Source: Candidatus Adlerbacteria bacterium
GTDB lineage: Bacteria > Patescibacteriota > Minisyncoccia > Phycocordibacterales > SBAW01
NCBI GenBank assembly: GCA_903884345.1
Contig: CAISEE010000005.1
Span: 1-35,852 of the forward strand
Direction of reading: 5' to 3'
Length of the DNA: 35,852 nucleotides
Below the pieces are notes generated by a model. It saw only the letters and a list, made by a program, of their open reading frames with translations, did not search any database and was not told the origin of the DNA. The position numbers were made by a program, and so were the translations under genes. Positions within the stretch are counted from its first letter, which is position 1, and every line of letters starts with the position of its first letter. Below are positions 3,695-32,976 of this stretch, piece by piece.

Positions 3695-5809
3695 ATGCTA
3701 CCTCAGCTGACATCACTATCGCATTCGCGTACGGTGGCAAGCCTTCGTGAAAGCGTTCGGTACGCGGCCCGAACGTACGGTGCGCGCCGCAAGCTTGTGG
3801 CCCTCGCCGTGCTCTTCCTCGTCTATTCCGTATCGCTGCAGGTCGGGTTCTCGCTGTACGACACCCTAACGTACCCCGCGCTGGTGTGGCCCGCCACCGG
3901 CATCGCCCTCGCCGTCCTCTATCTGGAGGGTACCGGCTTGTGGCCCGCGATCACGGCCGGCGTGTTTTTAGTAAACGTCCTCCACGGCAACCCATTGCTC
4001 GCGTCGCTCGGCATCGCCGTCGGCAATACGCTGCAGGCGCTGTGCGGCATGTACCTCTTGCGCGTCTCCCGCTTCGAACCGACGCTCCTGGGATTGCGCA
4101 ACACGTACATCCTCATCATCGTCGCGATTCTCACCGCGACCATAGGGCCGACCGTCGGCATCACAATGCTAGTACTCGCGGGCACGCATCAGATGTCCGA
4201 GGTGTCGAGCATATGGGCACTGTGGTGGCTCGGGCAATCGCTCAGTCTCCTCGTCATCACACCGTTTATCATGTCCTGGTTCGTCGGCACCCGCATCCGC
4301 CTGTATACCGAGCAGACCATCGAGTGGATGGCGGCGTTCCTCCTGCTTATCGGGACGGCCTACGCCATCTTTTGGACACCGGTCTTCGTCATCGGGCAAA
4401 CGCCGTTCGTATATCTCATCCTGGTACCCTTGGTGTGGATCACCTTGCGCATCGGCCCGCGCGGCACGACGCTCGCGCTCGTCACCATCACCGCGATATC
4501 GATATGCGGCGTCATCCTCAACGGTAACGCAAACATAGGCAGCGCCGATCGGCTCATCCAAATCGAATTCTTCGACTGTGTCATTGCCATCATCTTTCTG
4601 TTCTTCGTATCGAGCGAGGAAGGGCGCAAACAGGCAAACGAGTCCCTTCGCGACTACATCGTGCAGCTTGAGAACGCGCTCCACAAAATCAGTAACGAGG
4701 ATCGTGCAAAGAATGAGTTCATCGCCGTCTTGGCGCACGAACTGCGAAACCCGCTGGCGACCGTCTTAAGCTCGCTCGAACAAATTAGTGTGCGAAAGGT
4801 CCGGGGAGCCGAACTCGACGAGCTGGTCGGCACCATGAACGACCGCGTCCATACGATGGCGCGACTCTTGGACGACTTGCTCGACACCTCGCGTATCTCG
4901 CAGAAGAAGTTCAAGCTGCAAAAAGAGACGGTCGACCTCATCGACGTATTGCGCAAATCGATCGAGACGGCGAGCCAATTGATTCGTAACCGAAATCACG
5001 AACTCGTCCTCTTGCTGCCCAATGGACCCTTGTGGCTCCAAGCCGACCCGATGCGCCTCGAACAGGTCGTGGTGAACCTGCTCAATAACGCCGCCAAATA
5101 CACCGAAATCGGCGGCACCATCACGCTCACCTGTCGATCGACCGATCGGTCGATCATCGTCTCGGTCAAAGACACCGGCATCGGCATCGCGAAGGAAATG
5201 CTTCCCCGCATCTTCGAACCGTTCGTGCAAGTCGAGAAAGGCAAACGATCCGAAGGCCTCGGCCTCGGCCTCTCACTCTCGAAACGTCTGATCGAGATGC
5301 ATCAGGGAACAATCATGGCGCGCAGCGCGGGACTGAACACGGGCAGCGAATTCATCGTCGAGTTGCCCCTGCCCGCGGCCGTCCAACTGCCGATTCCGGT
5401 TACGAGTCGACTGCGGCAGTATACGACCACGACGCACGACATCCGATCGGTATTGGTCGTCGACGACAACACGCTCGCCGCCGAGGGGTTGGGCAAACTG
5501 CTGGCACACAAAGGGTACGTGGTAAAACTCGCGTTCGATGCCGCGAGTGCGCTCGCCACCGCGCGCGCCTTCAAACCCGACGCCGTCCTCCTCGACATCG
5601 GGCTCCCCGACATGAGCGGCTACGAGGTGGCCAAGCGGCTCCGCCAAAGCGGCGAGCATCAAAGCTTCATGGTGGCACTCACCGGATACGGCCAAGAGGA
5701 GGACCGTATGGAAGCCAATCGCGCCGGGTTCGATCATCACCTGACGAAGCCCGTGTCGCTTGCCGACGTCGAAAACGTCCTTGTTCGCGCAATGAAAAAA
5801 ACAGGGTGA
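3695..5809 (+). CDS. Hybrid sensor histidine kinase with MASE1 membrane sensor and C-terminal receiver
   Basis: 704 residues. Residues from about 35 to 305 hold eight or more membrane helices of MASE1 type (for example LVWPATGIALAV), an integral membrane sensor with unknown ligand. A short helix leads to the HisKA domain with phospho-acceptor H348 in VLAHELRNP. The ATPase domain follows with N-box NLLNNAAKY, G1 DTGIGI, F-box IFEPF and G2 GLGLGLSLSK. A complete receiver lies at about 582-704, with acidic pocket D590/D591, phospho-acceptor D634 in LLDIGLP, Thr in ALTG and Lys in TKP. All catalytic residues are present. No DNA-binding response regulator is adjacent. The phosphate may pass to the orphan OmpR-type regulator at 12113 or elsewhere, which is inference. 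TAAGAA at 3683-3688 lies 6 bases before the ATG and may be its -10 box. Confidence 0.92.
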   Translation: MLPQLTSLSHSRTVASLRESVRYAARTYGARRKLVALAVLFLVYSVSLQVGFSLYDTLTYPALVWPATGIALAVLYLEGTGLWPAITAGVFLVNVLHGNPLLASLGIAVGNTLQALCGMYLLRVSRFEPTLLGLRNTYILIIVAILTATIGPTVGITMLVLAGTHQMSEVSSIWALWWLGQSLSLLVITPFIMSWFVGTRIRLYTEQTIEWMAAFLLLIGTAYAIFWTPVFVIGQTPFVYLILVPLVWITLRIGPRGTTLALVTITAISICGVILNGNANIGSADRLIQIEFFDCVIAIIFLFFVSSEEGRKQANESLRDYIVQLENALHKISNEDRAKNEFIAVLAHELRNPLATVLSSLEQISVRKVRGAELDELVGTMNDRVHTMARLLDDLLDTSRISQKKFKLQKETVDLIDVLRKSIETASQLIRNRNHELVLLLPNGPLWLQADPMRLEQVVVNLLNNAAKYTEIGGTITLTCRSTDRSIIVSVKDTGIGIAKEMLPRIFEPFVQVEKGKRSEGLGLGLSLSKRLIEMHQGTIMARSAGLNTGSEFIVELPLPAAVQLPIPVTSRLRQYTTTTHDIRSVLVVDDNTLAAEGLGKLLAHKGYVVKLAFDAASALATARAFKPDAVLLDIGLPDMSGYEVAKRLRQSGEHQSFMVALTGYGQEEDRMEANRAGFDHHLTKPVSLADVENVLVRAMKKTG

Positions 5810-13008: not shown

Positions 13009-13359
13009 GAAGGTCTCGCCTATCATACTATCGACAAGCGCCCGTGGGGTAACTTCGAGCAGTTTACCCACAACGAGCAAACGACGGTGAAGATCATCAC
13101 CGTGGATGCCCTCGCAAAACTGAGCCTGCAGACGCACGACCGCCGCGGGGAGTTTTGGCGCATCATCTCGGGCTCGGGCATCGCCACGGTCGGCCAGGAG
13201 CAGCATAACGCCAAGACGGGCGACTCGTTCTTCATCCCCACGCACGCACAGCACCGCATGGAGGCGGGCCCCGAGGGCGTCGTCTTCATGGAGATAGCCT
13301 TCGGCGAGTTCGACGAGAACGACATTATCCGTATCGAGGATGCGTATGGTCGATCTTAG
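13006..13359 (+). CDS. Cupin phosphomannose isomerase (type II PMI domain)
   Basis: 117 residues, a stand-alone version of the C-terminal cupin of type II phosphomannose isomerase/GDP-mannose pyrophosphorylase. The family pattern is clear: RPWGNFEQF at the start, then VKIITVDALAKLSLQTHDRRGEFW, with the metal-binding His and Glu, IPTHAQHR with another metal His, and the closing ENDIIRIEDAYGR. It should interconvert mannose-6-P and fructose-6-P in the cytoplasm. The start at 13006 is chosen because the -10 box lies 8 bases upstream. A longer frame from 12916 would run through that promoter. It heads an operon with two GH130 genes and a phosphomannomutase-like gene, and its end overlaps the next gene. 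Confidence 0.88.
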   Translation: MEGLAYHTIDKRPWGNFEQFTHNEQTTVKIITVDALAKLSLQTHDRRGEFWRIISGSGIATVGQEQHNAKTGDSFFIPTHAQHRMEAGPEGVVFMEIAFGEFDENDIIRIEDAYGRS

Positions 13360-14506
13360 TTTCGCGAACGTGCCCGGATGGTTATTCGTCGTACTCGGCT
13401 TCTTCCTCGCCGCGTTGGTGTTTTTGCTGTGGCGCTACCTGCGCATCGTACCGGAGGGGAAAGAGGGGTCGCGTCTGTCGCTGAAGCGCCTGCCGCACAA
13501 CCCGATCCTCGGCCCCATCGCCAAGCATTGGTGGGAGTCGGAGGCCGTGTTCAATCCCGCCGCCTTCTGCGAGGATGGCATCGTGCACCTCTTCTACCGA
13601 GCCATGGGGCACGACGGCATCTCGCGCATCGGCTACGCCTCGAGTAAAGATGGTATCCACTTCGACGAGCGTCTTCCCTACCCGGTCTATGACCAAGGGC
13701 CGGGTTTTCAAGTCAACAAAGTAAACGGCAAGACCGAGCGCAAATACCAGCAACTTTCGTACAACACGCAAGAGTACGCCTCGGGCGGCGGCTGGGGCGG
13801 CTGCGAAGATCCGCGCGCGGTCAAAATCGACAACAAGATGTACATGTCCTTTACCATCTTCGAAGGCTGGGAGTCGATTCGACTCGCCGTGACGTCACTC
13901 CTCATGGACGACCTCAAGATGCTCAACTGGAAGTGGGCACCGCACATCAAAATGTCGCCTCTCAAAGAGACCCACAAGAACTGGGTGCTCTTTCCCGAGA
14001 AGATCGACGGCAAGTTCGCCATTCTTCACGCCCTTACACCCAACCTCGCGATTGAGTACGTCGATACGCTCGAAGAGCTCCATACCAATCCGCTCAAGAG
14101 CAACAACAAGCGCGGCGGCCGTAAGGGCGAGTGGGATGCATTCGTGCGCGGTGCAGCATCGCCCCCGGTCAAGACCGAGTACGGCTGGCTCCTCTTCTAC
14201 CACGGAATGGATCCGGCAACCCCCGCGGTCGGCTATAAGGTGGGTGTCATGTTGCTCGACCTTGCCGACCCCACGAAGGTGCTCTACCGCTCGTCCTACC
14301 CCGTGCTAGAGCCGACCGAGTGGTACGAAAACGACTGGAAGCCAGGCGTCGTGTACGCAAGCGGCGCAACCATCGTGGGCGATGACCTCTTTATCTACTA
14401 CGGCGGCGGCGACAAGTACATTGCGGCGGCCAAAGCCAACCTGAAGGACTTCATCCGTAAATTGCAGCGCAACGAGCACGCCGTCCTCGAGCCTATTCGC
14501 GCATGA
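13346..14506 (+). CDS. Membrane-anchored GH130 family glycoside phosphorylase/hydrolase
   Basis: 386 residues from the ATG at 13346, with GAGG 6 bases upstream. An ATG at 13340 would add two residues. Residues 11-31 are a strong membrane helix, followed by a basic WRYLR. The remainder is a five-bladed propeller of GH130 type: NPILGP (52-57), AVFNPAAF, FYRAMG, SRIGYASSKDG, GCEDPR with the family's catalytic-region Asp (152-157), LFPEKI, and a late FYHGMDPATP. Family knowledge: GH130 enzymes are mostly phosphorylases of beta-mannosides that release alpha-mannose-1-phosphate. Some hydrolyse and some run in the synthetic direction. With a short N-terminal tail the enzyme is probably tethered. Which face it occupies is not certain. 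The gene overlaps the isomerase gene by 14 bases. Confidence 0.85.
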   Translation: MVDLSFANVPGWLFVVLGFFLAALVFLLWRYLRIVPEGKEGSRLSLKRLPHNPILGPIAKHWWESEAVFNPAAFCEDGIVHLFYRAMGHDGISRIGYASSKDGIHFDERLPYPVYDQGPGFQVNKVNGKTERKYQQLSYNTQEYASGGGWGGCEDPRAVKIDNKMYMSFTIFEGWESIRLAVTSLLMDDLKMLNWKWAPHIKMSPLKETHKNWVLFPEKIDGKFAILHALTPNLAIEYVDTLEELHTNPLKSNNKRGGRKGEWDAFVRGAASPPVKTEYGWLLFYHGMDPATPAVGYKVGVMLLDLADPTKVLYRSSYPVLEPTEWYENDWKPGVVYASGATIVGDDLFIYYGGGDKYIAAAKANLKDFIRKLQRNEHAVLEPIRA

Positions 14507-14527
14507 TTAACCAATAACGCAACCCGT

Positions 14528-16444
14528 ATGTACATCATCCGACGCGCACCCAATAACCCGCTCCTCTCGCCCATTGCCGATCGCCAATGGGAGGCACGCG
14601 CGAGTTTCAATGGCTGCCCCGTCAAGCGCGGCAACGTCACACACCTCCTCTACCGCGCGCTCGGGCGACCCGACCCGCTCATGTCGCCGGGCGGCCTCTC
14701 GACCATCGGCAAGGCGATTTCAATCAACGGCGAGCGCTTCCACGATCGCAAGCAGTTTATCGTGCCTGAGGAGCCGTGGGAGAAATACGGCTGTGAGGAT
14801 CCACGTGTCACCTACTTCGAGGGCCAGTACATCATCTTTTATACGGCACTCGGCGGCATGCCCTTTGGGCCCAACAACATCAAGGTTGCGGCGGCATTCT
14901 CGACCGACCTCGAACACGTCACCGAGAAACACCTCATCACGCCGTTTAACGCCAAGGCGATGACCATCTTCCCCGAACGCATCAACGGCAAAATCACCGT
15001 GATGTTCAGCGCACACACCGATGAGCCACCCGCCCACATGGTGATTGCCCAGTGCAAGAAACTCGAGGATCTCTGGGACATCACTTTTTGGGAGAAATGG
15101 CACGCCGACTTCGACAGCCACATCCTCAACCCGCTGCGCTCCGACCACGATCACGTCGAGGTGGGCGCACCGCCGATCAAGACCAAAGACGGCTGGCTCG
15201 TCGTCTACTCGTATATCGAGAACTACTTCAGCGACAGCAAGGTCTTCGGCATCGAAGCGCTCCTTTTGGACCTCAATGACCCGATGAAGATCATCGGGCG
15301 CACGCGCGGCCCCATCATGACACCCGAAGAGAACTACGAGCACTTCGGCATCGTGCCCGAGATTGTCTTCCCCTCCGGCGCCCTGCTCGAGAAGAACCGC
15401 CTCGACATCTACTACGGCGCGGCCGACACGGTGTGTGCCAAGGCGTCGCTCAACGTGCAAGATCTTTTGAACGCGATGATTCCCGAGCGCCACAGCGGCC
15501 TCGTCGTGCGCGCCAAAGAGAACCCCATTCTCAAACCATTGCAAGAGCACGCCTGGGAGAAACGCGCCGTCTTTAACGCGGGCGTCGTCGACCTCGACGG
15601 CACGATCCACATCCTCTACCGCGCCATGGGCGACGACAATACCTCGGTCATCGGCTACGCGGGCACGAAGAACGGCGTCAAAATCACCGAGCGTTCGCCC
15701 GAGCCTGCCTACGTGCCGCGCGAGGATTTCGAGATAAAAAAAGGCGACGCCAACGGTAACTCCGGCTGCGAGGATCCGCGTCTTACGGTCATCGGCGACA
15801 CCGTGTACATGGCCTACACCGCCTACGACGGCGTCCATGCGCCGCGCGCCGCACTGACCTCGATCTCGAAGACCGACTTCTTGGCGAAGAAATGGAGCAA
15901 ATGGAGCAAGGCGCAGCTCGTGACGCCTGACGACTATGACGACAAGGACGCGTGCCTCGTCGAAGAGAAAATCGGCGGCCAGTACATGTTCCTCCACCGC
16001 ATCAGCCCGCAGTTGTGCGCCGACCTCATCAACACGCTCGACTTCAAGAAGAACCGCGTCAATCGTTGCATCGAAATCATGGGCCCGCGCCCGGGTAGTT
16101 GGGATAGCAAAAAGATCGGCATCGCGGGACCTCCAATCAAGACCGAAAAGGGTTGGCTCCTCATCTACCATGGCGTCTCCAAGCACAAGACGTACCGACT
16201 CGGCGCGGCGCTGCTCGACCTCGACAACCCGTCGATCGTGCTCTCGCGCGCCGTCGACCCGATTCTTGAGCCGGTCGACGACTTCGAGAAAAACGGCATC
16301 ATCCCCAACGCCATCTTCTCGTGCGGCATCGTCAATCGTGCCGGGACGCTCTACATCTACTACGGTGGCGCCGACACGGTCATGTGCGTGGCAAAGATGT
16401 CGCTCGCCAAATTGCTCAAAATCCTCACGCCTGATAACCTGTAA
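14528..16444 (+). CDS. Tandem GH130 protein with two fused propeller domains
   Basis: 638 residues, about twice a normal GH130 enzyme. Half one (about 1-318) has NPLLSPIADRQWEARASFNG, LLYRALG, GCEDPR (88-93), IFPERINGK and a closing YYGAADT. Half two (about 325-638) repeats the whole pattern with NPILKP, AVFNAG, ILYRAMGDD, GCEDPR (413-418), the equivalent 'VEEKIGG', 'IYHGVSKHK' and YYGGADT. The GCEDPR motif is kept in both halves, so neither half is obviously dead. In half two the phosphate-pocket segment reads 'DACLVEEKI' rather than 'LFPE'. No signal or membrane helix is seen, so the protein is cytoplasmic. It lies 21 bases after the anchored GH130 and 5 bases before the phosphomutase-like gene. 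Confidence 0.85.
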   Translation: MYIIRRAPNNPLLSPIADRQWEARASFNGCPVKRGNVTHLLYRALGRPDPLMSPGGLSTIGKAISINGERFHDRKQFIVPEEPWEKYGCEDPRVTYFEGQYIIFYTALGGMPFGPNNIKVAAAFSTDLEHVTEKHLITPFNAKAMTIFPERINGKITVMFSAHTDEPPAHMVIAQCKKLEDLWDITFWEKWHADFDSHILNPLRSDHDHVEVGAPPIKTKDGWLVVYSYIENYFSDSKVFGIEALLLDLNDPMKIIGRTRGPIMTPEENYEHFGIVPEIVFPSGALLEKNRLDIYYGAADTVCAKASLNVQDLLNAMIPERHSGLVVRAKENPILKPLQEHAWEKRAVFNAGVVDLDGTIHILYRAMGDDNTSVIGYAGTKNGVKITERSPEPAYVPREDFEIKKGDANGNSGCEDPRLTVIGDTVYMAYTAYDGVHAPRAALTSISKTDFLAKKWSKWSKAQLVTPDDYDDKDACLVEEKIGGQYMFLHRISPQLCADLINTLDFKKNRVNRCIEIMGPRPGSWDSKKIGIAGPPIKTEKGWLLIYHGVSKHKTYRLGAALLDLDNPSIVLSRAVDPILEPVDDFEKNGIIPNAIFSCGIVNRAGTLYIYYGGADTVMCVAKMSLAKLLKILTPDNL

Positions 16445-25026: not shown

Positions 25027-25635
25027 ATGCCGAAGCCTAATTCAGTTCTTATCGTCTTCAAAGCGCCCCCACCGCGTGTACCAAAGATTTTACACGAAGA
25101 GGTCGGGCGCATGTTCCCGCGCAAGAATATTCCGCTGATTACCGGGACCAGGTACCTGACCCTACCGCAGGATCAGGACCCGCTCAGTGCCTTGATTCAT
25201 GCGTGGCATATGCCGCAAGGGCTCGGCCGGACGTTCATGCATGACGTGCCGAAGGCGCTTGCGCAATGTGAACTCGTACTCGTTGAAGCGTTAGGCTTGT
25301 CGGTGTTCGCAGAAATCGCGCACAACCTTCCCGCCGACGCACCCGACCGGGAGGAGACACTTTCCCGATTGTTGGTTGTGCACCAGGCATTGGTGCAAGC
25401 CTACATGCAAGAGGCCAAGATAGCGGCGAAGATTGTCTATCTGGTCTTCGGGACGCGAGCAAAGTCTGAAGCGTACTATAACCAGTATCTGGGAGTGCTC
25501 GGACAAAAAATGCACCGCGTTCCGTCCCATGAATCCGATCTCGATATCGCACGATTCGCGGCTGCAGTCATCGGTGATATCGCGCACGAACACGGCATTC
25601 ACAACAACACCTCTCGGCTGCACGTAGCAGCGTAG
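25027..25635 (+). CDS. Unknown soluble protein, possible lineage-specific gene
   Basis: 202 residues, no signal and no membrane segment. It starts MPKPNSVLIVFKAPPPRVPKIL and continues with mixed alpha/beta sequence, ending in a His-rich stretch (DIAHEHGIHNNTSRLH). I recognise no domain. Several Glu/His positions in the last third (EVGRM, AHEHGIH) are not in a known metal motif. A strong terminator follows directly, separating it from the hydrogenase-like operon, so it is probably monocistronic. No Shine-Dalgarno sequence and no convincing promoter are seen. TAGACT at 24992-24997 lies about 30 bases upstream. Confidence 0.6.
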   Translation: MPKPNSVLIVFKAPPPRVPKILHEEVGRMFPRKNIPLITGTRYLTLPQDQDPLSALIHAWHMPQGLGRTFMHDVPKALAQCELVLVEALGLSVFAEIAHNLPADAPDREETLSRLLVVHQALVQAYMQEAKIAAKIVYLVFGTRAKSEAYYNQYLGVLGQKMHRVPSHESDLDIARFAAAVIGDIAHEHGIHNNTSRLHVAA

Positions 25636-25778: not shown

Positions 25779-26321
25779 ATGTTGCACCTATTTTCCAAGA
25801 TTTTCCGTGTAAACGCGTCTGTTTCCCGAACGACACCGACACACCACGATTCCGCATACATCGCAATGGGTACCCAAGTGCGCCAAAAGGTCGGCGCCTT
25901 TTTCGGGGGGTCACTCGCCATTCGCGTCGTGACGGCAGGCTCCACCAACGCCTGCGAGCAAGAGCTGATCGCGCTGGGGAACGCCTACTACGACGTCGAG
26001 CGCTTCGGCGTCCACTTCGTGGCCTCACCCCGCCATGCCGACATGATCATCGTGACGGGCCCGGTCTCGCGCAACATGGTGGCGGGCCTCACCGCGACCT
26101 ACAATGCGGCACCCAACCCCAAGGTGGTCGTGGCTCTGGGTGATGACGCCATCGACGGCGGCATATACCGCGGATCCTACGCGGTTATGGATGGCGTCCA
26201 CACCATAGTCCCGGTCCACTACTCGATCCCCGGCAACCCGCCGTCGCCGACGACCATCCTCGCCTCGCTTTTGGACATCCTCAAAGACATCGAAACAAAC
26301 GGCATCCCCACACTCGCATGA
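25779..26321 (+). CDS. hyfI: HyfI/NuoB-like small subunit with degenerate [4Fe-4S] site
   Basis: 180 residues from the ATG at 25779. The frame open to 25662 crosses the promoter. It aligns by eye with HycG/HyfI/NuoB over most of its length: DVERFGVHFVASPRHADMIIVTGPVSRNM (74-100) and the end VPVHYSIPGNPPSP are very close to family sequence. The four cysteines that normally hold the proximal [4Fe-4S] cluster read T56, C59, D123 and N153 (STNACE, GDDA, PGNPP where the family has CNGC, C and PGCPP). Only one remains, so the cluster should be lost. No other cysteine is close by. It overlaps the next gene by ATGA. As the first gene of the operon it is likely still a structural subunit of the peripheral arm. 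Confidence 0.85.
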   Translation: MLHLFSKIFRVNASVSRTTPTHHDSAYIAMGTQVRQKVGAFFGGSLAIRVVTAGSTNACEQELIALGNAYYDVERFGVHFVASPRHADMIIVTGPVSRNMVAGLTATYNAAPNPKVVVALGDDAIDGGIYRGSYAVMDGVHTIVPVHYSIPGNPPSPTTILASLLDILKDIETNGIPTLA

Positions 26322-28357
26322 TTACCCTACTACTTTCATCAACCGGCTTCTTCGGCTTTCTCTCGCTGTTCCTGGTGGGCGCCCTCGGCTCGCTCCTGTG
26401 CATGCGCCGCGACGCGCTGGCCAACTACGTAGGCAACAGCTTCGCAGCATTGGGCTCCTTGGGCGCACTCGTCTTCTCGTTCGTGGCGCTCACCTCGGGT
26501 CGCGCACCGACCTTCACGCTTCCCGCCGCACTCCCGTGGCTCAATTTTTCGATACATATCGACCCGCTCTCGGCGTTCTTCATGATGGTCATCTCGCTCA
26601 TCAGCGTCTTCTGCTCGATCTACGCCTTGGGCTACGTGCGCCACTTCTACGGCACCTACAACATCGGCAGCCTCGGCTTCTTCTTTAATGTCTTCATCGC
26701 GAGCACGCTCTTGGTCGCATCGGCACACAACGCACTGCTCTTCCTCATCGTGTGGGAGCTGATGGCACTCTCGTCGTTCTTCCTCGTCATCTACGAACAC
26801 AAGCAGAAGGAGAACGTCGAGGCGGGCTACCTCTACTTCATCATGACGCACACCGGGACGGCGTTCATCCTGATGTCGTTCCTGCTCCTCTTTCGCGCGA
26901 CGGGCTCGTTCGACTTTGACACCATCCGCGCCAGCGGTGCCATGATCTCGCCGCTTATGGCGAGCCTCATCTTCGTCTCGGCGCTGATCGGCTTCGGCAT
27001 CAAGACCGGCATCATCCCGCTTCACATTTGGCTCCCGAGCGCCCACCCGGCGGCACCGTCGCATGTCTCGGCCGTAATGTCGGGCGTCATGATTAAGACC
27101 GGCATCTACATGTTGGTGCGCATCGGTTTTGACCTCCTGCCGCACACACAGCTGTGGTGGGGATTCCTCGTCATTACCCTCGGCGCGGTCTCGTCGATCT
27201 TCGGTGTCCTCTACGCCCTGGCCGAGCACGACATCAAGCGCCTGCTCGCCTACCACTCGATCGAGAACATCGGCATCATCTTCCTCGGGCTGGGCAGTGC
27301 ACTCGTCTTCGCGGCGCTCAATCAGCCGACGCTGGCGCTGTTGGGCCTCGTCGCGGCACTCTTTCACACGCTCAACCACGCCATCTTCAAGGCGCTCCTC
27401 TTCTTGGCCGGTGGCGCCGCAGTCGGTCAAGTCCACACGCGCAACATCGAGCGCTACGGCGGACTCATCCGCTTCATGCCGGTCACGGCGCTGTGCTTCC
27501 TTATCGGCGCCATGGCCATTTCGGGACTGCCGCCCTTCAACGGATTCTTCAGCGAGTGGCTGACCTTCCAGGCGCTTTTCGTCGGCGCCGCGCTGTCGCT
27601 CCCGACCAAGATGCTCTTCGTCGTCGCGATCGCGGCTCTCGCCTACACCGGCGGGCTCGCGGCTGCCTGCTTCGTCAAAGCCTTCGGTGCGATCTTCTTG
27701 GCGCGCCCCCGCAGCGAAGCGGTCTCGCACGCGGTCGAAGCCACCTTCCCCATGCAATTTGCGATGGCGATGCTCGCCAGCCTCACCGTGATCGTCGGCT
27801 TCTGCGCGGGCAAAATCTCGCTCATGTTGGCGGGTGTCGCCACGAGCATGCAGGCGCTTTCGGGCGCCGCGCTGCCGGGCCACTTTATCCTTGCCGAGGT
27901 CAGCGTTCGCGAAGGGTTCGCGACCCTCTCGATGCCGGCAGTCCTCGCGGTCTTGCTCATGGCGCTCGGCGCAATCGGCCTCCTGACCGCCATCCTCTCG
28001 CGCAAGCAGTGCGTCACGACGGGCCCCACCTGGGATTGCGGCACGGCGCTCACCCCGCGCATGGAGATCACCGCGACCGGCTTCTCGCATTCGATCATCG
28101 TGGTCTTGCGGAGCGTCCTGCGCCCGACCCGTCAATCGGCGGTCGAGTACCACGATGCCGCACTGCGCTATTTCCCCAAGTCGCGCAGCGTGCACTTCGC
28201 GACACCCGACGTCTTCCTGGCACTCTACCGCCCGATCTCGCGCGGCATGACGCGCCTGTCGGCCGACGTGCGTCGCATCCAAAACGGCAACGTCAACGCC
28301 TACATCCTCTACATCGCCCTGACCCTCCTCATCTTGTTGTTTATCCTCGCTTGGTAA
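26318..28357 (+). CDS. hyfB: HyfB/HycC/NuoL-like antiporter-type membrane subunit
   Basis: 679 residues, about sixteen membrane helices. It is the large antiporter-like subunit of group 4 hydrogenases and complex I relatives. Key ion-path residues are kept: E147 (VWELMAL), K229 (FGIKTG), H236 (LHIWLP), K260 (VMIKTG), H350/H354 (FHTLNHAIFK) and K358. Later 'SGLPPFNGFFSEW' and the HycC-type C-terminal loop WDCGTALTPRMEI are present, followed by a long lateral stretch and a final helix (about 655-677). It should move H+ or Na+ across the membrane if coupled. It starts in the last codon of the small-subunit gene and lies 7 bases before hyfC. Four cysteines are scattered and no metal motif is seen. 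Confidence 0.92.
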   Translation: MITLLLSSTGFFGFLSLFLVGALGSLLCMRRDALANYVGNSFAALGSLGALVFSFVALTSGRAPTFTLPAALPWLNFSIHIDPLSAFFMMVISLISVFCSIYALGYVRHFYGTYNIGSLGFFFNVFIASTLLVASAHNALLFLIVWELMALSSFFLVIYEHKQKENVEAGYLYFIMTHTGTAFILMSFLLLFRATGSFDFDTIRASGAMISPLMASLIFVSALIGFGIKTGIIPLHIWLPSAHPAAPSHVSAVMSGVMIKTGIYMLVRIGFDLLPHTQLWWGFLVITLGAVSSIFGVLYALAEHDIKRLLAYHSIENIGIIFLGLGSALVFAALNQPTLALLGLVAALFHTLNHAIFKALLFLAGGAAVGQVHTRNIERYGGLIRFMPVTALCFLIGAMAISGLPPFNGFFSEWLTFQALFVGAALSLPTKMLFVVAIAALAYTGGLAAACFVKAFGAIFLARPRSEAVSHAVEATFPMQFAMAMLASLTVIVGFCAGKISLMLAGVATSMQALSGAALPGHFILAEVSVREGFATLSMPAVLAVLLMALGAIGLLTAILSRKQCVTTGPTWDCGTALTPRMEITATGFSHSIIVVLRSVLRPTRQSAVEYHDAALRYFPKSRSVHFATPDVFLALYRPISRGMTRLSADVRRIQNGNVNAYILYIALTLLILLFILAW

Positions 28358-28364
28358 AATCGTT

Positions 28365-29294
28365 ATGCACATCACGCTACTTTGGATCCTACAAATCGTC
28401 TTCATCCCGGCTCTTTCGCCGTTTGCGATCGGCCTCACGCGGCTCATCAAGGCGAAGTTTCAAAATCGCAAAGGCGCCTCACCGCTGCAACCCTACCGCG
28501 ACCTCTGGAAGCTCTTTCATAAAGACGAGGTCGTGAGCGAGGACGCGTCGTGGATATTCGCCTTCGCGCCCTACGTCGTCTTCGGCGTCACCCTGGCAAT
28601 CGGCGCCATGATACCGCTCGTCTCGACAGTGCTCGTAACCGGCCTCGCCGGCGACTTCCTCGTCATCGTCTATCTCGTCGCGCTCGGGACCTTTTGGCTC
28701 GCGCTGGCAGGCATGGACACCGGGAGCGCCTTCGGCGGCTTCGGCTCCTCGCGCGAGATGATGGTCGCCGCCTTCACCGAAGGCGGGCTCGTCCTCTCGC
28801 TCCTCACCCTCGTCCTCCTCGCCGGCACCACGAACCTCACTGGTGTCGCAGCCGCCGTCGCGGGGCTCCCTTTCGCCGACGTCGCCTCGGTGACACTGGC
28901 GGGCGTCGCCTTCGTCATCGCGATGCTCGCCGAGACCTCGCGTTACCCCTTCGACAACCCCGCGACGCACCTCGAGCTCACGATGATCCACGAGGCGATG
29001 ATCCTCGAGTACTCGGGCAAGCGCCTGGCGCTCATGGAGTGGGCGGCTGCCAACAAGTACCTCATTTTCATCTCGCTCGGCACAACGCTCTTCTTCCCCT
29101 GGGGCATGGCACACACGCTTGGTACTGGGGCGATCGCACTGAGCGTCGCGATACTGCTTCTCAAAGACGCGCTGCTGTGCGCCGCGATCGCCACGCTCGA
29201 ATCGTCCATCGCCAAACTGCGCATCTTCCGCCTGCCTGACCTCCTCTTTACCGCCTGCATCCTCGGATTAATCGCTATCGGACTCATCGCCTAG
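28365..29294 (+). CDS. hyfC: HyfC/HycD/NuoH-like membrane subunit
   Basis: 309 residues, eight or so membrane helices. NuoH-family landmarks are NRKGASPLQPYRDLWKLF (34-51) and the acidic segment ETSRYPFDNPATHLELTMIHE (190-210), with E190, D197, E204, E210 and E215, the charged path next to the peripheral arm. The usual 'GSSREMM' loop is present (FGSSREMMVAAFTEGG), though the family 'AEP' reads 'TEG'. In complex I and group 4 hydrogenases this subunit joins the redox arm to the antiporter arm. Its charged residues are intact although the redox arm here is not. No Shine-Dalgarno sequence precedes the ATG. Confidence 0.92.
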   Translation: MHITLLWILQIVFIPALSPFAIGLTRLIKAKFQNRKGASPLQPYRDLWKLFHKDEVVSEDASWIFAFAPYVVFGVTLAIGAMIPLVSTVLVTGLAGDFLVIVYLVALGTFWLALAGMDTGSAFGGFGSSREMMVAAFTEGGLVLSLLTLVLLAGTTNLTGVAAAVAGLPFADVASVTLAGVAFVIAMLAETSRYPFDNPATHLELTMIHEAMILEYSGKRLALMEWAAANKYLIFISLGTTLFFPWGMAHTLGTGAIALSVAILLLKDALLCAAIATLESSIAKLRIFRLPDLLFTACILGLIAIGLIA

Positions 29295-29296
29295 GT

Positions 29297-29962
29297 ATGC
29301 AACACCTCATCCTCCAACTCACCCTCATCCTCGAGTTCGCGATTTTCGCGTCGGTGGTCTTCATGCACCTCGTCAAGAAGAATGCGACCACGATCCATTT
29401 ATACACGCTCCAGTCGGCGGCGACCGCGGCACTGCTCCTCATCGCCGCACTGCGCCACCTCTCACCCATGCTCCTTCTGGCGGTCACGGCGACGGTCATC
29501 GTCAAAGTCTGCCTCACGCCGTACTTCTTGGCCCGCCTCATCGATACCCATCAGCTGAAATTCTCGACCAGCACCTACCTCAACAGCCCGCTGACGCTCC
29601 TCATCCTCGCAGGGTTCGTCGCCTTCGCGCACAGCCCGTTCTTCGCGCCGCTCGTCGCGCTGTCGCAGGGCAATCCGACACTCGTCCTCATCTCGATCGC
29701 GACACTCCTCGGCTCGCTCTTCCTCCTCATCAATCGTAAAGGCGCAATCTCGCAGATTTTGGGCATCATCTCGATTGAGAACAGCATCGTCACCTTCGCA
29801 CTCTTCTCGGGGCTCGAGCAGAGCCCGGCGCTCGAGCTCGGCATCGCCTTCGACATGCTGATCTGGGTGTTGGTCGCCGCACTCTTCACCTCGATGCTCT
29901 ACCGCCAGTTCGGCACCATCGACGTCACCACTATGAGAAAGCTCACCGATTCACCACAATGA
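29297..29962 (+). CDS. hyfE: HyfE-like membrane subunit (NuoK-related)
   Basis: 221 residues with about seven membrane helices. It matches HyfE, the subunit whose C-terminal half corresponds to NuoK/MrpC. The NuoK-like acidic pair is seen as E161 (GIISIENSIVTFALF) and E180 (LELGIAFD). The N-terminal half is an additional hydrophobic domain ending in LTPYFLARLI. It lies 2 bases after hyfC and overlaps hyfF by ATGA, so translation is probably coupled. In known complexes it sits in the membrane arm between HyfC and the antiporter subunits. Confidence 0.88.
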   Translation: MQHLILQLTLILEFAIFASVVFMHLVKKNATTIHLYTLQSAATAALLLIAALRHLSPMLLLAVTATVIVKVCLTPYFLARLIDTHQLKFSTSTYLNSPLTLLILAGFVAFAHSPFFAPLVALSQGNPTLVLISIATLLGSLFLLINRKGAISQILGIISIENSIVTFALFSGLEQSPALELGIAFDMLIWVLVAALFTSMLYRQFGTIDVTTMRKLTDSPQ

Positions 29963-31401
29963 ACATGCTCGCACTCCTATTCGCAACACCGCTCGCCGCG
30001 GCCATCCTTTCGATTATCGCGCGCAAGCAGCGCATGATCACGCTCGTTGCCGTGGTCGCAACGGCGCTCGAGGTCGTGCTCGCGCTCCTCATCTCGGCCA
30101 AGACCGCGTCGGGCAGCGTCGTCGCCCTCACCGGCAGCTTCGCCGCCCCGGCGCTTAGTTGCATCGTCCTGGTGACGATCGCCGTGACCGGATTCTTTTG
30201 CGCGCTCTACTCGTCGGGCTACTTCGCGGTCGAGGTCGCCAAAGGGATCGTCGGCTTCCGCCGCGTGCGTCAGTACTTCGCGCTCGTGCACCTCTTCCTT
30301 TTGGCGATGTTCGTGGCGACCCTCACTACCGCGCCCATGATCATGTGGATCGCAATCGAGCTCACGACGCTCGTCACCGCCTTTCTCGTGAGCTTCTACA
30401 ACAAGCCGTCGGCGATCGAGGCCGCATGGAAATACCTCATCATCAACTCGGTGGGGTTGCTCCTGGGATTCCTCGGGACGCTCCTTTTCTTTACCTGCCT
30501 TTCGGATGCCGGCACCGCACTCGTCACCTGGGACACGCTGCGCGCCGCCGCCTCGCACCTAAACCCCTCGATCGCCAAAATCAGTTTCGTTCTCGTCCTC
30601 ATCGGCTATGGCACCAAGGTCGGTTTCGTCCCGATGCATACCTGGAAGCCCGACGTCTACAGCAAAGTCCCGACCCCCGTCGCGATGCTCTTTTCGGGCC
30701 CGCTCGTCAACGTCGCCCTCTTGGCACTCCTGCAGTTTAAAATCATCACCGACGCGGCGATCGGCTCGGCGTTTACCGGCCGCATGCTCATCGTCTTCGG
30801 GTTGGCCTCGGTGCTCCTGGCCGCCTGCGTCATCTTCACACAGTGGAACTTCAAGCGCCTCTTCGCCTACTCGGGCATCGAGCACGCCGGCATCATGGCA
30901 CTGGGCTTCGGCTTCGGCGGCATCGGCACCTTCGCGGCGATCCTCCACATGCTCTACCACACGCTCGCCAAGTCGGTCCTCTTTACCGCCACGGGCAACG
31001 TCTTTTTGAAGTACAGCTCGACTAAAATCGAGCGCGTGCGCGGCATGCTCACCACGCTCCCCGCGACCACGATCGTCTTCATCGCCGGATTCTTGGCGAC
31101 CGTCGGCCTGCCACCCTTCGGCATTTTCTTCACCGAGTTCTACATCGTGGCTGCCGGCATCGGGGCGCACCCCATCGCCACCGCGGGCCTCATCCTCTCG
31201 CTCGCGGTCGTCTTCATCGGCTTCCTTAAACAGGCGATGCGCATGACCTTCGGCGCACCACCCAAGGGCGTGAGCGCGGGCGAAGGCAGCTACGCCACAT
31301 TGCTCCCGCCGATGGTGCTCTTGGGGATTCTCTTCATCGCGAGCGTGTACCTCCCGTTTGGTGTCAAAGCATTTATCGAGACCGCAGCCGCATCACTCTA
31401 A
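29959..31401 (+). CDS. hyfF: HyfF-like antiporter-type membrane subunit
   Basis: 480 residues, about fourteen membrane helices of the NuoN/NuoM/MrpD superfamily. Ion-path residues are E134 (IAIELTTLV), K220 (YGTKVG), H227 (VPMHTW) and the later H/K of LYHTLAKSVLF. The loop after the histidine reads HTWKPDVYSKVPTPVAML, with Lys230 where Leu or Val is usual. 'FGIFFTEFYI' is the second antiporter landmark. Family knowledge: such subunits carry protons or sodium. It is a second antiporter-like channel in the same operon as hyfB, and hyfD (a third in E. coli Hyf) is absent. It starts inside the stop of hyfE, and a 6-base gap follows to hyfG. Confidence 0.9.
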   Translation: MNMLALLFATPLAAAILSIIARKQRMITLVAVVATALEVVLALLISAKTASGSVVALTGSFAAPALSCIVLVTIAVTGFFCALYSSGYFAVEVAKGIVGFRRVRQYFALVHLFLLAMFVATLTTAPMIMWIAIELTTLVTAFLVSFYNKPSAIEAAWKYLIINSVGLLLGFLGTLLFFTCLSDAGTALVTWDTLRAAASHLNPSIAKISFVLVLIGYGTKVGFVPMHTWKPDVYSKVPTPVAMLFSGPLVNVALLALLQFKIITDAAIGSAFTGRMLIVFGLASVLLAACVIFTQWNFKRLFAYSGIEHAGIMALGFGFGGIGTFAAILHMLYHTLAKSVLFTATGNVFLKYSSTKIERVRGMLTTLPATTIVFIAGFLATVGLPPFGIFFTEFYIVAAGIGAHPIATAGLILSLAVVFIGFLKQAMRMTFGAPPKGVSAGEGSYATLLPPMVLLGILFIASVYLPFGVKAFIETAAASL

Positions 31402-31407
31402 ATTTGT

Positions 31408-32976
31408 ATGAGCATCAACGATATCATCACGACCTATCTCCCCGCGAACACCGAGTCGCACCTGCGCGGTAACGTCATCATCGTGCCCGTGACGACCGAG
31501 ACGCTCCTTGCGCGAGCCACAGCACTCTACCGCGAGCACAAACTGCCCCTGAAACTCATCACCGTGCAAGACGACCGCGCGGCCTCGGGCACGTTCGCCA
31601 TCCTCTACGTCTTCGGCATCCCGGGCGAGACGAACTTTCTTGCACTGCAACTCTCGACCACCGACGCCTTCCCGTCGCTCACACCAACAATCCACGAGGC
31701 GAGCCTCTACGAGCGCAAAATTCGCTCGCTCATGGGCCTCACCCCGACCGGCCACCCCAACCCGCAGTCGATCATCGTCCACGAAAACTGGCCCGCAGAC
31801 GTCTTCCCCCTGCGCAAAGATTTCGCGTGGAATACGCGCCCCGAGACAGGCGGCACCACGTTTGAGTTTATGAAAGTCGGCGGCGAGGAGGGCATCTACG
31901 AACTCCCGGTGGGCCCCGTCCACGCCGGCATCATCGAGCCGGGACACTTTCGCTTTAACCTCGCGGGCGAAGAAATCCTCTTGCTCGAGCCGCGCCTGGG
32001 TTACTCGCACAAAGGCGTCGAGAAACTCTTCGAACATTTGCCGCTTGATAAAAAAGTGGCACTTTCGGAGCGCATCGCGGGAGACACGTCTTTCACCTAC
32101 TCGCTCGCCTTCTGCCAGGCACTCGAATCACTCGCCGCAATCAGCGTCCCTGCGCGCGCACTGTACCTGCGCACCATCTACTCGGAGCTCGAGCGCCTCG
32201 CCAACCACTTCAGCGACATCGGTGCCATCATGACCGACACCGGCTTTAACTTCGGCGCCGCACAAGGTGCCCGCCTGCGCGAGCGCATCATGCGCCTGTG
32301 TGACGCGCTGACCGACAGCCGATTCCTTCGCGGCGTCAACCACCTTGGTGGTGTGACCCGCGACCTCAACGCAGAGACCTCGGCACACCTCAAAGCCGAG
32401 ATCGAGGCGCTCCAAATTGATTTCAACGAAGTCATGGCAATCACCGAAGACAGCAGCACGCTCAAAAACCGCCTCGAAGACACCGGCGTCCTCGATGCCC
32501 AAATCGCCCGCGACCACGGCGTGACCGGCGTCGCCGCCCGCGCCTGCGGCATCGCGAGCGACTCCCGCGTCGAGCACCCCTATGCCGCCTACGGCGACCT
32601 CACCGTCGCCGTCGCAAGCGCCCCAACCTGCGACGTCATGGCACGCCTCCTGGTGCGCGTCCAAGAGACCCGCACGTCGATGGACCTCATCCTCGAAGCG
32701 CTCGCAAAACTCCCGAGCGGCCCTGTCAGTACAAAAGTCACCACTCCGATTTTTGCAAAAAGCAGCACCGCTGTCTCAATCACCGAGGGCTGGCGCGGCG
32801 ACATCGTTTGCTTCGTCGCAACCGACGCGCACGGCACCATCACCCGCGTCGACATGCGCGACCCTTCCTTCCTCAACTGGCCACTGGTCGGTGAAGCCGG
32901 CAAAGGCAACATGGTCCCCGACTTCCCCCTCATCAACAAAAGCTTCTCCCTCTCCTACACCGGCGGGGATATGTAA
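31408..32976 (+). CDS. hyfG: HyfG-like large subunit (NuoC-NuoD fusion) without Ni-Fe cysteines
   Basis: 522 residues. Residues about 1-145 correspond to the NuoC (30 kDa) part, and about 165-522 to the NuoD/[NiFe] large-subunit part with GYSHKGVEKL (199-208) and NFGAAQGARLRERIM. In group 4 hydrogenases the active site uses two CxxC motifs. The first, in ERVCGIC, reads ERIAGDT here (A224, T227). The second, in DPCxSC near the end, aligns with SLSYTGGD (S516, G519). All four Ni-Fe ligands are gone. The protein ends right after this motif, with no cleavable C-terminal extension, and no maturation protease or hyp genes are in the window. It should not make or use hydrogen. It may bind a quinone-like or other ligand, or act structurally. 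Confidence 0.9.
   Translation: MSINDIITTYLPANTESHLRGNVIIVPVTTETLLARATALYREHKLPLKLITVQDDRAASGTFAILYVFGIPGETNFLALQLSTTDAFPSLTPTIHEASLYERKIRSLMGLTPTGHPNPQSIIVHENWPADVFPLRKDFAWNTRPETGGTTFEFMKVGGEEGIYELPVGPVHAGIIEPGHFRFNLAGEEILLLEPRLGYSHKGVEKLFEHLPLDKKVALSERIAGDTSFTYSLAFCQALESLAAISVPARALYLRTIYSELERLANHFSDIGAIMTDTGFNFGAAQGARLRERIMRLCDALTDSRFLRGVNHLGGVTRDLNAETSAHLKAEIEALQIDFNEVMAITEDSSTLKNRLEDTGVLDAQIARDHGVTGVAARACGIASDSRVEHPYAAYGDLTVAVASAPTCDVMARLLVRVQETRTSMDLILEALAKLPSGPVSTKVTTPIFAKSSTAVSITEGWRGDIVCFVATDAHGTITRVDMRDPSFLNWPLVGEAGKGNMVPDFPLINKSFSLSYTGGDM

What the first reader, a model, noticed from the sequence alone, without database searches (positions are those of the whole stretch)
25779..32976. 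Six-gene Hyf/complex I-like operon that appears to lack all redox centres
The gene order hyfI-B-C-E-F-G encodes the membrane arm and the two core peripheral subunits of a group 4 hydrogenase-like complex. Seen in sequence: three of four [4Fe-4S] ligands are replaced in the small subunit, all four Ni-Fe cysteines are replaced in the large subunit, and no ferredoxin-like (HyfA/HyfH) subunit or maturation gene is present. Known: Ehr complexes lack the Ni-Fe cysteines, but the proximal cluster is usually described as kept. Inference: this complex couples something other than H2 or ferredoxin redox chemistry to ion movement, or is an ion channel/antiporter built from hydrogenase parts. The overall framework is well conserved, which argues against a pseudogene.
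Basis: partly seen in the sequence, partly recalled or inferred. Interest (0 to 1): 0.9.

Follow-up and report, generated by a model that had tools for sequence, protein, structure and literature searches.

The report
Redox-free complex I-like ion machine
A tiny-genomed Patescibacteria bacterium carries a cousin of the respiratory complex I / hydrogenase machine that has lost its whole electron-carrying chemistry but kept every key residue of its ion channels, and in many relatives its genes sit beside or inside the ATP synthase operon, so it probably moves ions without any redox reaction.

Summary
The operon is intact (hyfI-B-C-E-F-G, 25779-32976). HyfI lacks three of four [4Fe-4S] ligands, HyfG lacks all four Ni-Fe cysteines, and the genome has no HypD and no Fer4_7 ferredoxin. 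It is not a one-off. Among 82 related HyfI proteins (E. coli references set aside), 56 have none or one of the four cysteines, mostly in Patescibacteria. A second Ehr lineage in the same phylum lost the same ligands independently. Purifying selection is strong (dN/dS 0.04-0.16). The HyfI fold is intact (1.5 Å to complex I NuoB/PSST). Buried ion-path charges are kept in 41-45 of 45 cysteine-less complexes. New here: in 25 of 39 cysteine-less loci, but 0 of 14 four-cysteine Ehr loci, the operon lies beside the F-type ATP synthase genes, once between atpG and atpD. The c-rings look H+-type. Best reading: a redox-free ion translocator, perhaps an antiporter, in the H+ circuit of the F-ATPase. The transported ion and the driving reaction are not shown. 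Jaffe et al. 2020 already reported that CPR Ehr large subunits lack the metal-binding cysteines; I found no report of the small-subunit cluster loss or the ATP synthase linkage.

The parts
25779..26321 (+). hyfI: NuoB/small-subunit homologue without a complete [4Fe-4S] ligand set
   Evidence: Pfam PF01058 1e-22; AlphaFold2 pLDDT 92, 1.5 A over 134 residues to complex I PSST (7zm7_K), 1.7 A over 137 to MbhJ (6cfw_J)
25944..25955 (+). former CxxC ligands of HyfI: T56 ... C59
   Evidence: aligned with E. coli HyfI C,C; C59 is not conserved in relatives
26145..26147 (+). former third cluster ligand of HyfI: D123
   Evidence: D in 14 of 14 clade A members
26235..26237 (+). former fourth cluster ligand of HyfI: N153
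   Evidence: D or N in clade A
26318..28357 (+). hyfB: antiporter-like membrane subunit; buried E147, K229, K260, E413 kept
   Evidence: NF005086 4e-206; residues aligned with NuoM E144, K234, K265, E407
28365..29294 (+). hyfC: NuoH-like subunit; E139, D197, E204, E215 kept
   Evidence: PF00146 1e-43
29297..29962 (+). hyfE: NuoK-like subunit; E161 invariant, N162 nearly so
   Evidence: NF008556 2e-13
29959..31401 (+). hyfF: second antiporter-like subunit; E134, K220, E393 kept
   Evidence: NF005044 2e-116
31408..32976 (+). hyfG: large-subunit homologue (NuoC-NuoD fusion type) without Ni-Fe ligands and without a C-terminal tail
   Evidence: PF00346 2e-42 and PF00329; AlphaFold2 pLDDT 91; Z 47 over 510 residues to HycE 7z0s_E
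32077..32088 (+). former first CxxC of HyfG: A224 GD T227
32953..32964 (+). former second CxxC of HyfG: S516 YT G519
   Evidence: E. coli HyfG C517/C520 align here

Best explanation
The operon encodes a redox-free descendant of Ehr/group 4 hydrogenases: a complete membrane ion-translocating arm (HyfB, C, E, F) with a conserved but cofactor-free peripheral module (HyfI, HyfG). It most likely moves protons through its antiporter-like subunits without electron transfer, working in the same H+ circuit as the F-type ATP synthase. My best guess at the work done is secondary, Mrp-like exchange of H+ for another cation, driven by the gradient that the ATP synthase maintains in a fermenting cell. Shown: gene content, ligand loss, predicted fold intact, intact ion-path residues, purifying selection, ATP synthase linkage in relatives, H+-type c-ring sequences. 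Inferred: that it moves ions at all, the absence of redox chemistry in vivo, antiport as the mechanism, and acidic replacements serving as protonatable sites where the cluster used to be.
For: All Ni-Fe ligands and the cluster ligand set are gone in the window and its clade. Replacements are fixed rather than drifting: in clade B the second ligand is E in 42/42, the third G in 41/42, the fourth D in 37/42; in clade A the third is D in 14/14. Buried ion-path residues are kept in 44-45 of 45 cysteine-less complexes in HyfB and HyfC; HyfF E134 and K220 in 45/45 and E393 in 41/45 (otherwise K). dN/dS is 0.04-0.16 for the five genes tested. Predicted folds are intact. ATP synthase genes lie within 3.3 kb of the operon in 25 of 39 cysteine-less loci against 0 of 14 four-cysteine Ehr loci. 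Arrangements differ: after atpC in most, between atpG and atpD in L011, flanked by atpC and atpDGA in L009. The linked ATPases group with the ordinary ATPases of their lineages, and the c-subunits lack the Na+ signature. Own genome: no HypD, no Fer4_7, and no Proton_antipo_M gene beyond this operon's two.
Against: In the window's own genome the complex (contig 5) and the ATP synthase (contig 34) lie on different contigs, so adjacency is not shown there; in a same-genus relative they share a contig about 5 kb apart. Kaiserbacteria and Acidobacteria copies are unlinked. The linkage counts are not phylogenetically independent. Nothing shows transport or names the ion, and why an antiporter would keep HyfI and HyfG is unexplained. 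Only one ferredoxin family was searched. The operon is patchy: 4 of 41 genomes of the family and about 12 of 380 of the phylum.
Confidence: 0.5

Rival explanations
1. A gradient-driven enzyme like DAB2: proton flow through the membrane arm drives a non-redox reaction in the former active-site cavity of HyfG/HyfI.
For: DAB2 is a complex whose membrane subunit resembles complex I proton-conducting subunits and couples PMF to CO2 hydration (PMC13144422). The peripheral module is kept with new fixed residues (E, G, D) at the old cluster site, which a plain antiporter would not need.
Against: No catalytic signature beyond the hydrogenase/complex I domains was found in HyfG or HyfI; no substrate candidate; no metabolic neighbour gene is conserved.
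Confidence: 0.17
2. It is still a redox pump: an unknown cofactor or soluble partner delivers electrons or hydride to an organic acceptor in the HyfG cavity.
For: Ancestors and most relatives are thought to be redox enzymes; one Ehr lineage in the phylum (L178) keeps a ferredoxin-like motif fused to a HyfI without the proximal ligands.
Against: No Fe-S ligand set and no flavin- or nucleotide-binding subunit in the operon; no Fer4_7 ferredoxin in the genome; no recurrent oxidoreductase neighbour.
Confidence: 0.13
3. A regulator or leak valve for the ATP synthase: it dissipates or limits the H+ gradient or is an assembly partner of the F-ATPase.
For: Gene order with atpA-G-D-C in many lineages.
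Against: Two antiporter-type subunits with a full set of path residues are more than a valve needs; copies occur without linkage.
Confidence: 0.1
4. A decaying hydrogenase relic.
For: Loss of cofactor ligands; patchy distribution.
Against: dN/dS 0.04-0.16, replacements fixed across lineages, conserved six-gene operon.
Confidence: 0.02

Closest known systems
[quoted passage not shown]
   Same: Homologous subunits; large subunit without Ni-Fe ligands; antiporter-like membrane arm. Jaffe et al. 2020 (PMC7304191) report that CPR Ehr large subunits are monophyletic and lack the metal-binding cysteines.
   Different: The proximal [4Fe-4S] ligand set of HyfI is also lost; the operon lies beside or inside the ATP synthase cluster in many relatives; neither point was found in the papers read.
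E. coli hydrogenase 4 / formate hydrogenlyase (Hyf, Hyc)
   Same: Same subunits HyfI, B, C, E, F, G; HyfG model Z 47 to HycE.
   Different: No HyfA, D, H, J; no Ni-Fe site, no cluster, no C-terminal tail on HyfG, no HypD in the genome.
Respiratory complex I
   Same: NuoB-, NuoCD-, NuoH-, NuoK- and NuoL/M/N-like parts with the same buried charges.
   Different: No cluster, no NADH module in the operon.
Mrp cation/proton antiporter
   Same: Redox-free use of antiporter-like subunits related to the complex I membrane domain (PMC9568556).
   Different: Keeps HyfC, HyfI and HyfG homologues, which Mrp lacks (own knowledge); only two Proton_antipo_M genes and no Mrp operon in this genome.
DAB2 vectorial CO2 hydration complex
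   Same: A complex I-like membrane subunit coupled to a non-redox cytoplasmic subunit (PMC13144422).
   Different: The cytoplasmic part here is HyfI/HyfG, not a carbonic-anhydrase-like fold.

Membership tests
Group 4 [NiFe] hydrogenase | Two CxxC motifs binding Ni-Fe in the large subunit | tested here: not met
   A224, T227, S516, G519 in place of cysteines
Group 4 [NiFe] hydrogenase | Maturation genes (HypD) in the genome | tested here: not met
   No HypD in the own genome; present in 4 of 22 genomes with cysteine-less complexes, where it may serve other hydrogenases (not tested)
Ehr | Group 4-related large subunit without Ni-Fe ligands | tested here: met
   Trees place the window with Ehr-type large subunits, apart from E. 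coli HyfG; ligands absent
   T56, C59, D123, N153; all four ligands are kept in the related non-CPR Ehr sequences
Respiratory complex I | NuoB cluster ligands | tested here: not met
   E. coli NuoB has C at three of the four aligned columns, the window at one
Respiratory complex I | NADH-oxidising module in the operon | tested here: not met
   The operon holds six genes, none NuoE/F/G-like; elsewhere in the genome not searched
Mrp antiporter | Antiporter-like subunits with conserved buried Lys/Glu | tested here: met
   HyfB and HyfF
Mrp antiporter | Mrp gene set (separate MrpB-G partners) instead of hydrogenase-type peripheral subunits | tested here: not met
   The operon holds HyfC, HyfI and HyfG homologues and no further small membrane gene
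Mrp antiporter | Cation/H+ antiport activity | not testable with these tools
   needs a transport assay
DAB complex | DabA carbonic-anhydrase-like subunit | tested here: not met
   No such gene in the operon; peripheral genes are Oxidored_q6 and Complex1_49kDa/30kDa

The most novel reading that the evidence does not exclude
A widespread class of complex I-family machines that do ion-coupled work with no electron transfer at all, as dedicated partners of the F-type ATP synthase in fermenting Patescibacteria, with a new acidic site built where the iron-sulfur cluster used to be.
Probability: 0.42. Interest if true: 0.9.

Novelty: new variant of a known kind. Interest (0 to 1): 0.74.

Why it matters
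How electron transfer in the peripheral arm drives ion movement in the membrane arm of complex I is a long-standing question. A natural complex that keeps the coupling module and the channel residues but appears to have no redox centre would separate the two halves of that problem: it would show what the peripheral module does without electrons. It would also give Patescibacteria, usually described as lacking electron transport chains, an overlooked way of using the ATP synthase's ion gradient. Genome annotations that call these genes hydrogenase or NADH dehydrogenase would be wrong for H2 and redox budgets.

Tried and rejected
A dedicated second ATP synthase for the complex: two genomes (L008, L036) carry two c-subunits, but in the AtpD tree the linked ATPase groups with the ordinary lineage ATPases and the extra one is divergent, so I dropped it. 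Na+-type c-ring: not found. DPSFLN as the second Ni-Fe motif: my first mapping, corrected by alignment with E. coli HyfG. Upstream gene 25027-25635 as a seventh subunit: no Pfam hit and no homologue in the other loci. One origin of the cysteine loss in clades A and B: not settled (branch support 23; the wider AU test did not finish). Literature searches for an earlier report of the ATP synthase linkage or small-subunit cluster loss found none in the open library; subscription papers (for example Marreiros et al. 2013, named from memory) could not be read.

Full report
What is there. The six genes are exactly as described: hyfI 25779-26321, hyfB 26318-28357, hyfC 28365-29294, hyfE 29297-29962, hyfF 29959-31401, hyfG 31408-32976, overlapping by 4 bases or a few bases apart. 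The window is contig 5 of an 887 kb genome judged 100% complete; its relatives make it a patescibacterium.

Cofactor sites. Against E. coli HyfI the four cluster ligands read T56, C59, D123, N153. The remaining cysteine is not conserved. HyfG reads A224 and T227 at the first Ni-Fe motif and S516 and G519 at the second. The eye-catching DPSFLN at 485-490 is not the second motif. HyfG ends at the former second motif, without the tail carried by E. coli HyfG. The genome has no HypD and no Fer4_7 ferredoxin, a family present in all 14 control genomes, and its only Proton_antipo_M genes are HyfB and HyfF.

Not an accident. A scan of genome contigs gave 209 relatives, the best 80 fetched. Over those, same-family genomes and an independent phylum sample, 48 HyfI sequences have none of the four cysteines, 8 have one and 25 have all four; these counts include the window and, among the four-cysteine ones, E. 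coli HyfI. Same-genus and same-family copies are also cysteine-poor. Two clades are well supported, A (with the window) and B (TNAEE...GDGA...PGDPP); whether they are sisters is unresolved. In a sample of 380 Patescibacteria genomes, 12 carry cysteine-poor HyfI (the window and a few genomes already fetched among them), while large subunits with the hydrogenase motif ERICGxC also occur in the phylum. One more Ehr lineage, L178, lies inside the four-cysteine Ehr clade and has lost the proximal ligands too (GGDNSAE, CGNPP), although it keeps a fused ferredoxin-like motif. So loss of the proximal cluster happened at least twice, on this tree.

Functional constraint. dN/dS is 0.04-0.16 for I, B, C, F and G in nine pairs of relatives, saturated pairs set aside; all pairs are from clade B, none involves the window itself. 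Replacements at the old cluster site are fixed within clades. The HyfI model (pLDDT 92) matches complex I PSST at 1.5 Å over 134 residues and MbhJ at 1.7 Å over 137; the HyfG model (pLDDT 91) matches HycE with Z 47 over 510 residues. Buried ion-path residues (NuoM E144, K234, K265, E407 in HyfB; E144, K234, E407 in HyfF; NuoH E157, D213, E220, E228 in HyfC) are kept in 41-45 of 45 cysteine-less complexes, most of them in all 45. HyfE E161 is invariant.

ATP synthase linkage. Neighbour clustering, confirmed by Pfam for one locus, showed atpA, atpG, atpD and atpC next to the operon. Counted over loci with at least 3 kb upstream: 25 of 39 cysteine-less against 0 of 14 four-cysteine loci. These counts are not phylogenetically independent, so the Fisher value of 2e-5 overstates the case. 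But the arrangements differ (after atpC; between atpG and atpD in L011; flanked in L009; same contig, about 5 kb apart, in G026), and both clades show it, which argues for maintained proximity. The linked ATPases are ordinary lineage ATPases and the c-subunits look H+-type (judged by eye from sequence). In the window's own genome the ATP synthase is on contig 34, so linkage is not shown there.

What it probably does. With channel residues intact and electron transfer seemingly impossible, the most economical reading is a redox-free ion translocator in the ATP synthase's H+ circuit, perhaps an antiporter. A gradient-driven enzyme like DAB2 (PMC13144422) is the main rival and would better explain the fixed replacement residues. 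Neither is tested. Confidence in the first is 0.5.

Prior knowledge. Jaffe et al. 2020 (PMC7304191) placed CPR sequences in a monophyletic group within Ehr and noted that they lack the metal-binding cysteines and likely cannot interact with H2. PMC6349859 describes Ehr by absence of the Ni-Fe ligands. The cluster loss in HyfI and the ATP synthase linkage were not found in any paper read; subscription papers were not available.

Noticed in passing
L016, L017, L022, L025, L029, L033, L046: In Moranbacteria-type loci HyfC and HyfE are fused into one ORF of about 535-568 aa.
   Followed up: partly
L178 (G244:C4:110000-129999): A second, distinct Ehr operon type in the phylum: HyfI keeps an N-terminal CxxCxxCxxxCP motif but has lost the proximal cluster ligands.
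   Followed up: yes
L068: A contig binned as Methanosarcina carries a HyfI without the four cysteines (D,T,D,N) and an Ehr-type HyfG on a long branch; misbinning not excluded.
   Followed up: partly
L044, L048, L059: Contigs labelled Acidobacteria carry clade B complexes; transfer or misbinning not resolved.
   Followed up: no
L188 and L189: Genomes of L008 and L036 hold a second, divergent F-type ATP synthase besides the one linked to the complex.
   Followed up: partly
G038 (L092, L093): One same-family genome shows two HyfG copies on different contigs, both without Ni-Fe ligands.
   Followed up: no
window 13340-16441: Two adjacent GH130-family (mannooligosaccharide phosphorylase) genes followed by an HAD/phosphomannomutase-like gene.
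   Followed up: no
window 3695-5806: Hybrid histidine kinase with a MASE1 membrane sensor and a receiver domain.
   Followed up: no
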